From Williamsoniiplasma somnilux (GTDB lineage: Bacteria; Bacillota_I; Bacilli_A; Mycoplasmatales; Mycoplasmataceae), in NCBI RefSeq assembly GCF_002804005.1, contig NZ_CP024965.1:558001-622000 (forward strand): 64,000 nt of DNA, read 5' to 3'. Of the stretch, positions 25,741-27,931 are shown piece by piece. The first letter of the stretch is position 1, and every line of letters begins with the position of its first letter. A program made the position numbers and the translations under genes. The notes below the pieces were generated by a model. It saw only the letters and a program-made list of their open reading frames with translations. It did no database searches and had not been told where the DNA came from.

Positions 25741-26686
25741 ATGTTCAAAATTAAAAATTATACAAAAGGCTGAATAAAAGATTGGCATTTTTGGTTTGAA
25801 GCACTTTTAGGATTGGCTATTTTTGCTTTTTTATTTTTAAAAATAATTTTAGCAATTTTAGAAATAATAGAAATTCAAATAAATATTAGGCAATGAATTA
25901 ATGAACAGGATTTAGACAGTTTAACTACAGCACAAATTATGGCTCATTTAACAGATAAAACGATTTACAATCAAGATTATGCTTCTTGAATAATTATTGG
26001 TGTTAATAAAGAATCAGAAACAATTACTGCAATGGCAAATATTGGTAGTTACATTTTTTATTGATTTAGCTATTTTACTCATGATTCAAATATTTTAGTG
26101 GGAATATGATTATTAGCTTTGTCTTCAAGCAAAATTTATCCTAAATTAAATTCTAAAGATTATCGTTTTTTAACATATAACTGAAGTTTAGTAGTTACTA
26201 CTTTTATTACAATAACATCTGTAATTTTTACTTTTTTGTTAGTGCCTACATATTTTTTTGGAAATGTAAATCAAGGAGATATTAATATTACTTTTTTAGA
26301 TATCGTTTCAGGAGTTGTTTTACATATCATATTCCCATGAATTTTTATAATTTATCAAATTTGAATTAACCCCATGAAAGTGCAATTCGCTCCAAAAGAA
26401 TATGCAAAAAGAAAATGATTTGCTGGTCCGATGCTTTTGGTTATATATTCGGTCGGCAGCTGTTTTAATTAGGGGTGAGTTTAGAGCTCAAGATCTAAAA
26501 CCTGGCGCTACTAGATATCCTTATTTCTTTTTCAATATTCATGCCACTAACTTAATGGGTTTACCCGGATGGGCTTGATTGATTATTGCTTCAATTGCAA
26601 TCATTACAATTTATTTAGTTACTTCAAATACATACAATTATTCAGTTTGAAAAAAACAAGAAAAAGCAAAACTATCAAAAAAATAG
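25741..26686 (+). pseudogene. frameshifted multi-TM membrane protein (DUF1600/Pr6Pr-like)
   Basis: Reading from the ATG behind AAAGGATAAAAAAT gives about 240 residues ending at TAG 26470. In the +1 frame from about 26450, the reading continues without a break (AAVLIRGEFRAQDLKPGATRYP) to TAG at 26684, adding a further membrane segment. The total length is 3n+1, so one extra base around 26447-26470 is likely. The whole would be a ~314-aa protein with six or seven TMs, like a membrane family common in Spiroplasma and Mycoplasma. Either inactivated, a sequencing error, or a +1 recoded gene. It is divergent from rplU. Confidence 0.7.
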
Positions 26687-26698
26687 TTTTGCTTTTTT
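26661..26698 (+). terminator. intrinsic terminator, possibly bidirectional
   Basis: Fourteen-bp stem with AAAAGCAAAACTA in its left arm and TAGTTTTGCTTTT in its right arm, including the stop codon of the frameshifted gene. T6 follows on the plus strand; an A-run on the other side would also serve the convergent gene at 26707. Confidence 0.85.
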
Positions 26699-26706
26699 GG
26701 TTTTAA

Positions 26707-27021
26707 TTAATAAAAGGGATTTGTGTGAATAGAATTTTCAATTTCAGAATTAACATAATTATTAATATCAGAATAAACAATGTTATTGTTGCTTTTTAAA
26801 ATAGCTGAATCATCTCAAGAAATTGAAACATTTTTGCCAAAATTTATATCTGACTTAATATGGTTATCGCTTTCTTCTAAAAAAGCATAAAACATCCCGC
26901 CGACTCCTGTTATGAGATTTGTTACTGAATCAATTATATTTGCAACTCCATCCAATAAAGAACCGCTAATGTTTGTTCCGCCTTTAATTTGTTGTGTCTC
27001 TTTTAAGGATAAACTTTTGAT
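26707..27021 (-). CDS. small secreted-type peptide with double-glycine leader, 104 aa
   Basis: Residues 4-15 read LSLKETQQIKGG, matching the class II bacteriocin leader consensus LSxxELxxIxGG at L-12, S-11, E-8, I-4 and GG. The segment after the GG (TNISGSLLDGVANIIDSV) is amphipathic and Gly-rich, then an acidic, Asn-rich tail ends in NPFY. No ATG exists: the only codon at the right distance (4 nt) from AGGGGTGA is ATC at 27019-27021, in frame with the rest. It lies 19 nt after rsmI. The peptide would need a C39-peptidase ABC exporter, which is not in this window. Precursor of a bacteriocin or signal peptide is inferred. Confidence 0.6.
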
Positions 27022-27040
27022 TTTATCACCCCTATTTAGA

Positions 27041-27931
27041 TTAGAATTTTTTATAAAATTTTAAATAAAGATTATAAATTTCATTTTTATTTTTATTAAC
27101 TATATTGCTAGTTATTTCTACAGCTTGTTTAGTTTTAAAACCGTTATCAACATATTCTTGAACCTTTGAAGCAATTTGTTGGTCACTTAGGGTTTCAATC
27201 TCTTTTAAATGTTTGTCAACAACAATCACGAATTCACCTTTTTCTATAAACTCAGAAGAATTCAAATAATCATTAATTTCGCCAATTGTCCCAATAATGA
27301 ATTCTTCATTAATTTTAGTTAATTCACGAGCTATTAAAAGTTTTTGCGTAGATAAAAGGATTTGATTAAGATGATTGACAGTATCTTTGATTCTATGAAC
27401 AGATTCATAAATGGCTACAATTGCTGAACTATTATATTTGCTAATAATTTGAGCAATTTCTTTATATTTATTAACACCATTTTTTGCTTCGATAAAACCA
27501 TGAAAATAATTTTCTTTATTATTAAATCCTGAAGCAACAATAGCATGAATATATGCAGGGCCAACATTAATAGCAGAAACGTTAAAATTTATATTTTCAT
27601 TTCTAAGTTGAGAAATGAAATGTGCACCTGGATCAGAAATAACCGGAGCTCCTGCATCAGAAATTAGGGCAATGTTTTTTCCTGCCAATAACAAATCAAC
27701 AATTTCTTTAATCCTTTGTTGTTCATTGAATTTATGCAAAGATATTAATTTAGATTTAATATTATATTTATTTAATAAATTACCACTGGTGCGAGTGTCT
27801 TCACAACAAATAAAATCTACATTTTGCAATATACTAACAGCACGAAAACTAAAGTCTTCAAGATTTCCGATTGGAGTCCCGACCAAATAAATGGTAGGTA
27901 AATTGTTTTTAAAAGTTTTTTGAATAATCAT
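27041..27931 (-). CDS. rsmI: 16S rRNA C1402 2'-O-ribose methyltransferase
   Basis: A 296-aa SAM-dependent tetrapyrrole-methylase-fold enzyme. Seen: YLVGTPIGNLEDFSFRA, CEDTRTSGNLL, and ALISDAGAPVISDPG, the cofactor-site block of RsmI (YraL). The normal length has a C-terminal helical extension. It methylates C1402 of 16S rRNA in the P site. It is followed by the double-glycine peptide gene and preceded by the greA terminator. Confidence 0.96.
   Translation of the reverse strand: MIIQKTFKNNLPTIYLVGTPIGNLEDFSFRAVSILQNVDFICCEDTRTSGNLLNKYNIKSKLISLHKFNEQQRIKEIVDLLLAGKNIALISDAGAPVISDPGAHFISQLRNENINFNVSAINVGPAYIHAIVASGFNNKENYFHGFIEAKNGVNKYKEIAQIISKYNSSAIVAIYESVHRIKDTVNHLNQILLSTQKLLIARELTKINEEFIIGTIGEINDYLNSSEFIEKGEFVIVVDKHLKEIETLSDQQIASKVQEYVDNGFKTKQAVEITSNIVNKNKNEIYNLYLKFYKKF

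What the first reader, a model, noticed from the sequence alone, without database searches (positions are those of the whole stretch)
26707..27021. Double-glycine leader peptide gene with an apparent AUC start
LSLKETQQIKGG matches the LSxxELxxIxGG leader at five key positions, followed by a Gly/Ser/hydrophobic segment typical of exported peptides. This type of leader is cut by C39-peptidase ABC exporters in lactic bacteria; it is not a standard annotation in Mollicutes. The only start at proper distance from AGGGGTGA is ATC, so it may be translated weakly or recently silenced. Possible bacteriocin or cell-cell signal.
Basis: partly seen in the sequence, partly recalled or inferred. Interest (0 to 1): 0.8.

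Follow-up and report, generated by a model that had tools for sequence, protein, structure and literature searches.

The report
Missing cargo peptide of mycoplasma exporters
A tiny gene in a cell-wall-less bacterium makes a peptide with a cut-here tag for a particular type of exporter; relatives of the gene run through two families of these bacteria, and they are good candidates for the unidentified cargo of an exporter those bacteria are known to carry.

Summary
The minus-strand ORF 27021-26707 starts at ATC, behind AGGGGTGAT, 19 nt after rsmI. It has a 15-residue double-glycine leader whose DNA pattern occurs once in the genome. The genome has one C39 protein, about 85 kb away, with catalytic residues kept.

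The peptide belongs to an unnamed family: 51 of 60 genomes of the window's GTDB family carry it. Peptide and C39 exporter are both found in 49 and neither in 8. In a second family, 78 of 79 exporter genomes have it. The two copies that lost the last glycine sit in genomes whose exporter is gone or in pieces. The gene is under purifying selection. A 2019 paper found no such peptide for a mycoplasma C39 exporter.

The ATC start is probably not decay: 8 of 51 copies, this one included, have ATA, ATC or ATT there. Unexpectedly, exporters of the window's relatives have lost Walker A, yet the remnant is under selection. Bacteriocin, signal or envelope role stays open; nothing here shows expression.

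The parts
26707..27021 (-). GG-leader peptide gene, 104 aa, genetic code 4 (one TGA read as Trp)
   Evidence: homologues
27019..27021 (-). AUC start codon, residue -15 from the cleavage site, in the column where 38 of 51 homologues have ATG
27025..27033 (-). extended Shine-Dalgarno AGGGGTGAT
26977..27021 (-). 15-residue leader, with L(-12), E(-8), I(-4), G(-2)G(-1)
   Evidence: recognition positions from PMC6363468 passages
26710..26976 (-). predicted mature peptide of 89 residues: Gly/Ser-rich hydrophobic stretch, then the conserved KSDINFGKNVSISWDDS segment and a polar tail
   Evidence: single-sequence AlphaFold helix 17-64, mean pLDDT 64.9
27041..27931 (-). rsmI, upstream gene, 19 nt before the start codon; upstream neighbour on the same strand in 36 of 51 homologous loci
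   Evidence: the name rsmI is recalled
26661..26697 (-). terminator-like hairpin after the gene, also terminator-like for the convergent + strand gene

Best explanation
It is the precursor of an exported, membrane-active-looking peptide. Ribosomes start at the AUC codon with help from the extended Shine-Dalgarno, which keeps output low. The genome's only C39 protein binds the 15-residue leader, cuts after Gly-Gly, and lets the 89-residue peptide out or into the membrane. The family is the main cognate substrate of C39 exporters in at least two families of Mycoplasmatales, so those exporters are not orphans. Shown by sequence: the gene, leader, family, co-occurrence, joint decay, purifying selection, recurrent non-AUG codons at the start position, and pseudo-ATPase exporters among the window's relatives. 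Inferred: initiation at AUC, cleavage, export, low output, and the role. I take a bacteriocin-like or self-directed membrane action as most likely (about 0.5), ahead of a signal or envelope component (about 0.35 together).
For: One leader-pattern match and one C39 match in the genome. Window's family, 60 genomes: both 49, peptide only 2, exporter only 1, neither 8; Fisher 1.5e-7 as searched, 7.2e-7 after two genomes with partial exporters are moved. Second family: 78 of 79 exporter genomes have the A3 peptide; the two peptide profiles match, hhalign probability 98.3, E 1.4e-14. The last glycine is kept in 49 of 51; the two exceptions are G023, exporter gone, and G031, exporter in pieces. Two genomes have exporter remnants and no peptide: G153, G199. 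dN/dS 0.02-0.42 in the 21 pairs of 22 with dS above 0. A C39-type Cys motif in 20 of 21 exporter regions. Leader positions L(-12), E(-8), I(-4) fit C39 recognition.
Against: No cleavage, export or expression was observed. The peptide gene is about 85 kb from the exporter gene. The exporter of this genome lacks Walker A, so ATP-driven export is doubtful. G022 has a full-length exporter ORF, yet no peptide was found. G139 has a C39 match and no peptide hit. G010, G017 and G202 have damaged exporters but keep the glycine, so glycine loss is 2 of 5 damaged or absent against 0 of 46 others, p 0.008, the 46 not all checked for integrity. Position -7, hydrophobic in known leaders, is Leu or Met in only 18 of 51, and Thr here. 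None of the counts is corrected for relatedness.
Confidence: 0.78

Rival explanations
1. An ordinary class II-type bacteriocin used against competitors.
For: Gly-rich helix after the leader; 2 of 17 A3 members match Pfam Bacteriocin_IIc, best E 8.8e-4; the window peptide has a weak match to lactococcin G-beta NF038034, 13.6 bits against a cut-off of 37; 5 of the 8 peptide loci of genus g7 carry a second GG-leader ORF directly downstream, as two-peptide bacteriocins do.
Against: Single copy by profile and pattern, beside rsmI in 36 of 51 loci, purifying selection, no same-strand neighbour that could be an immunity gene, C-terminal motif shared by two families. The convergent neighbour is a split membrane-protein gene of unknown role.
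Confidence: 0.35
2. A cell-cell signal or an envelope component that the producer itself needs.
For: Wide conservation together with the exporter; a weak start codon position.
Against: A mature length near 89 residues is long for a pheromone (recalled); peptide and exporter are both missing by these searches in 8 of 60 genomes, one of which (G008) is an incomplete assembly with part of an exporter.
Confidence: 0.3
3. The gene is decaying in this genome: the ATC is a dead start.
For: No in-frame ATG; no close relative of the window species is held to test selection on this copy alone (nearest pairs have dS near 2 or more).
Against: ATA, ATC or ATT at the same codon in 8 of 51 genomes of four genera, 7 of them behind GGTGAT and 6 of them without any in-frame ATG; dN/dS 0.19 and 0.41 between pairs that both have such codons; full ORF and intact leader here.
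Confidence: 0.1
4. Leader-like N-terminus by chance; the C39 protein has another job, such as the lipoyl-peptide import proposed for JCVI-syn3A 0401.
For: The 2019 model paper proposed it because no GG peptide was known (passage).
Against: Co-occurrence, loss of the last glycine with the exporter, constant leader register.
Confidence: 0.06

Closest known systems
GG-leader class II bacteriocin precursors (Pfam PF10439, NCBIfam TIGR01847)
   Same: Short leader ending in Gly-Gly with L(-12), E(-8), I(-4); hydrophobic Gly-rich stretch after it; relative L016 passes the TIGR01847 cut-off, 16 against 15.7 bits
   Different: The window peptide matches neither model at E up to 1; longer mature part with a conserved C-terminal motif; single copy, unlinked to the exporter
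PCAT/AMS peptidase-containing ABC exporters (PCAT1, ComA, LahT)
   Same: C39 domain with Gln, Cys, His and Asp invariant in five aligned exporters incl. this genome's
   Different: Here and in nine relatives the ABC domain has no Walker A; ABC_tran fails in 6 of 6 of these tested, though the part is under purifying selection
NCBIfam NF045998, Mbov_0121 family peptidase domain-containing ABC transporter
   Same: The window genome's exporter matches over 5-623, E 2.5e-47
   Different: 161.5 bits, far under the cut-off of 500
NCBIfam NF045747, MPN313 family (no function given)
   Same: Members, e.g. in the 580,076-base genome G047, have 15-residue GG leaders; weak matches from 3 of 17 and 1 of 19 peptides of my alignments
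   Different: Different C-terminal part; kinship with the window peptide not established
Genes with AUU/AUA starts and extended Shine-Dalgarno (S. aureus infC, cvfC1, ccpN)
   Same: Non-canonical start with strong, extended SD (PMC13009471 passages)
   Different: There the start was mapped by ribosome profiling; here it is inferred, in a secreted-peptide gene, and the codon varies between species

Membership tests
GG-leader (double-glycine) exported peptides | Leader ending in GG with hydrophobic -4 and -12 | tested here: met
GG-leader (double-glycine) exported peptides | C39 peptidase encoded in the same genome | tested here: met
GG-leader (double-glycine) exported peptides | Cleavage after GG and export | not testable with these tools
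   needs biochemistry
Class II bacteriocin (PF10439, TIGR01847) | Match to the family models | tested here: not met
   window peptide: no match at E up to 1 in either; some relatives match
Class II bacteriocin | Adjacent immunity gene | tested here: inconclusive
   no same-strand candidate beside it; the convergent neighbour is a split membrane-protein gene of unknown role
Class II bacteriocin | Killing activity | not testable with these tools
   needs an assay
PCAT/AMS exporter (the C39 protein of this genome) | C39 domain with catalytic residues | tested here: met
PCAT/AMS exporter (the C39 protein of this genome) | ABC ATPase with Walker A and signature motif | tested here: not met
   ABC_tran 13.7 bits against 25; no Walker A or signature found
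NF045998 Mbov_0121 transporter | Score over curated cut-off 500 | tested here: not met
   161.5 bits
NF045747 MPN313 | Match to the family model | tested here: not met
   no match in G000 nor for the window peptide

The most novel reading that the evidence does not exclude
Mycoplasmatales carry one inherited, single-copy exported-peptide system. Its peptide is dosed by near-cognate start codons, and in the window's relatives its exporter has become a pseudo-ATPase that still cuts the leader, so that maturation and release run without ATP hydrolysis by that protein.
Probability: 0.35. Interest if true: 0.85.

Novelty: new variant of a known kind. Interest (0 to 1): 0.74.

Why it matters
Mollicutes have kept a C39 exporter through extreme genome reduction (218 of 248 genomes searched), and the minimal-cell paper could name no substrate and proposed an unrelated job (PMC6609329 passage). 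A conserved candidate substrate makes that question testable with one purified domain and one short peptide. The pseudo-ATPase exporters ask how a peptide gets out without the usual engine. Recurrent ATA, ATC and ATT codons at the start would make gene finders that accept only ATG, GTG and TTG miss or truncate such genes, as happens to this one.

Tried and rejected
Upstream in-frame ATA (near 27054) as start: rejected by eye, no Shine-Dalgarno before it. Promoter scan: 13 sites against 14.5 expected, so the TTAATA-TATAAT at 27099-27071 is no evidence. Rfam: no match in the window at gathering score. HPr identity to PDB 1pch (M. capricolum, recalled) was at most 78 percent in the 60 family genomes, so I take it that no genome of that cluster is held; JCVI-syn3A itself is untested. 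A second GG peptide in Mesoplasma-like genomes (G022, G027, G138, G034): rejected, the hits lie in large membrane proteins. The G139 hit of NF045747: rejected, a large protein. Stronger Shine-Dalgarno pairing of ATA/ATC/ATT genes by duplex energy: not significant, p 0.07, although GGTGAT stands before 7 of 8 against 2 of 38 ATG genes. Solved structures: no hit for the exporter at 1e-5, nothing I could use for the peptide profiles.

Full report
What is there. The window lies at 558001-622000 of an 868,413-base genome. On the minus strand, 19 nt after the rsmI stop (27041), an ORF runs from ATC at 27021 to a stop at 26707. It reads IKSLSLKETQQIKGG, then 89 residues with a Gly/Ser-rich hydrophobic stretch and a VSISWDDS segment. 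A single-sequence AlphaFold model gives one long helix, residues 17-64, at modest confidence (mean pLDDT 64.9). A terminator-like hairpin follows at 26697-26661, and another separates the upstream greA-like gene from rsmI (gene names recalled), so rsmI and the peptide may form one unit; that is inference.

Is it more than chance? A degenerate DNA pattern for the leader occurs once in the genome, at this gene, and not in the reversed control. Among 60 genomes searched, 36 gave a match to the peptide at E 0.1 or better. A profile of 19 peptides (A1) was run on 248 genomes of the order: 93 matched at E 0.1 or better, among them 51 of the 60 genomes of the window's family, all 51 at 3.1e-11 or better; matches in other families are weak. 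I read all 51 leaders. Residue -1 is Gly in 49 of 51; -2 is Gly in 41, Ala in 9, Glu in 1; -12 is Leu, Met or Ile in 51; -8 is Glu in 26; -4 is Ile, Val or Leu in 46. C39 proteases read -12, -8, -7 and -4 (PMC6363468, passages). Position -7 is Leu or Met in only 18 of 51.

The family reaches further. Peptides of a second family (f7) were aligned as A3 (17 sequences); the profiles of A1 and A3 match with hhalign probability 98.3 and E 1.4e-14. From genome sizes I take f7 to hold Mycoplasmopsis and Metamycoplasma: G167 has 877,438 bases, G233 1,003,404 and G084 665,445, which I recall as M. agalactiae PG2, M. bovis PG45 and M. hominis. These names are recalled, not given by a tool. NCBIfam NF045747 (MPN313), without a stated function, also has GG leaders of this length, for example in G047 of 580,076 bases, but its kinship with the window peptide is only weakly supported. 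The window's own species was not identified.

Exporter. The window genome has exactly one C39 match, in a 636-residue protein with a GTG start at genome position 497945-499855, minus strand, between a PfpI-like gene and ybeY (gene names recalled), about 85 kb from the peptide gene. Over 248 genomes, 218 have a C39 match. In the window's family, as searched: both peptide and exporter 49, peptide only 2 (G010, G023), exporter only 1 (G022), neither 8; Fisher 1.5e-7. Two entries need a note: G010 has an exporter broken over several frames, and G008, an 85 percent complete assembly counted under neither, has the end of an exporter at a contig edge. With both moved, Fisher is 7.2e-7. None of this is corrected for relatedness. 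In f7, 78 of 79 exporter genomes have the A3 peptide at E 1.6e-10 or better; G139 lacks it. The tool cut its list, so f7 genomes without an exporter could not be counted.

Joint decay. The two peptides that lost the last glycine are G023 (GV) and G031 (EV). G023 has no exporter left; a search with a close exporter found only matches of about 30 percent or less to the ATPase part there. The exporter of G031 is in pieces. G017 and G023 peptides differ by two nonsynonymous and no synonymous changes. Remnants of the exporter without a peptide occur in G153 and G199. Against this, G010, G017 and G202 have damaged exporters and kept the glycine, so the glycine is lost in 2 of 5 genomes with a damaged or absent exporter and in 0 of 46 others, p 0.008; the 46 were not all checked for integrity. 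G022, whose 793,224 bases I recall as Mesoplasma florum L1, has a full-length exporter ORF, but no peptide was found, and the DNA segment that holds it in G034 gave only a 70-base match.

Selection. Of 22 close pairs, 21 had dS above zero, with dN/dS from 0.02 to 0.42. Six wider pairs gave 0.19 to 0.41. Values at the highest dS, including both pairs with the window gene, are near saturation.

Start codon. Of 51 homologues, 38 have ATG at residue -15, 3 ATC, 3 ATA, 2 ATT, 3 GTG and 2 TTG; 10 have no in-frame ATG upstream of the leader core. G150, G004 and G002 do have an upstream in-frame ATG, so their start is less certain; this leaves 6 genomes with ATA, ATC or ATT and no ATG. Controls by the same kind of test: rsmI without ATG in 2 of the 33 loci where its motif was found, of 51 given; ybeY in 0 of 10 of 29 given; but the exporter gene itself in 12 of 23 of 29 given, so weak starts mark both peptide and exporter genes. 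GGTGAT stands before 7 of 8 ATA/ATC/ATT codons and 2 of 38 ATG codons (Fisher 5e-6, uncorrected for relatedness); the pairing energy does not differ significantly, p 0.07. In S. aureus, AUU and AUA starts with extended Shine-Dalgarno motifs were mapped by ribosome profiling and reduce initiation (PMC13009471, passages). So an AUC start that works at low level is the best reading; silencing is less likely.

Pseudo-ATPase exporters. Of 21 exporter regions read, 9 have Walker A and a signature motif, 10 full-length ORFs have neither, and 2 are broken (G031, G167). The 10 are G000, G001, G002, G003, G004, G005, G006, G015, G018 and G022. The C39 Cys motif was found in 20 of 21 regions (the script picks ORFs by it); it found the His in 19 of these, and in G014 I see it by eye in the sequence. 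Gln, Cys, His and Asp are invariant in the five exporters of alignment A2. Pfam ABC_tran passes in 4 of 4 intact proteins tested and in 0 of 6 degenerate ones. The degenerate part is still under purifying selection, dN/dS 0.21 and 0.23 in two pairs. So in these relatives the protein looks like a leader protease with membrane helices and a structural, non-ATPase tail. How the peptide leaves is open; self-insertion of its hydrophobic helix is my guess.

What is known. The JCVI-syn3A model paper says that no candidate GG peptide was found for its C39 protein 0401, in line with an earlier survey of mycoplasmas, and proposed lipoyl-peptide import instead (PMC6609329, passages; the survey itself, Dirix 2004, was not held). 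Ten searches of the paper library listed no title that reports such peptides in Mollicutes; I saw the listed rows and abstract starts only, plus passages of six papers, long lists were cut, and most subscription papers are missing from the library. Pfam does not name the window peptide, and NCBIfam gives only two matches far below cut-off.

Verdict. A real, conserved GG-leader peptide gene with a plausible near-cognate start, the best candidate substrate of the Mollicute C39 exporters that I could find. Cleavage, export and role await experiment.

Noticed in passing
25741-26472 and 26402-26686, + strand: A membrane-protein gene convergent with the peptide gene appears as two overlapping ORFs in different frames, either a frameshift or a sequence error; no relative was compared.
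   Followed up: no
L021, L072, L155, L163, L169 (genus g7): A second GG-leader ORF lies directly downstream of the peptide gene in 5 of the 8 g7 peptide loci, an arrangement like two-peptide bacteriocins.
   Followed up: partly
L187:417-1214, + strand: The exporter ORF of G167 is only 266 residues long, although its peptide ORF is intact.
   Followed up: no
L033 and L328 (G017); L329 (G202): Exporter genes of genus g7 look damaged more than once: a frameshift in G017, many stops in G202.
   Followed up: partly
L315:1600-1788, minus strand (G045, family f10): An AG-leader peptide of a third family also seems to start at ATT, behind GGAAGTGAT.
   Followed up: no
exporter loci of the window's family (list): 12 of 23 exporter genes have no in-frame ATG before the C39 motif; by eye the starts look like TTG, GTG or ATT.
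   Followed up: partly
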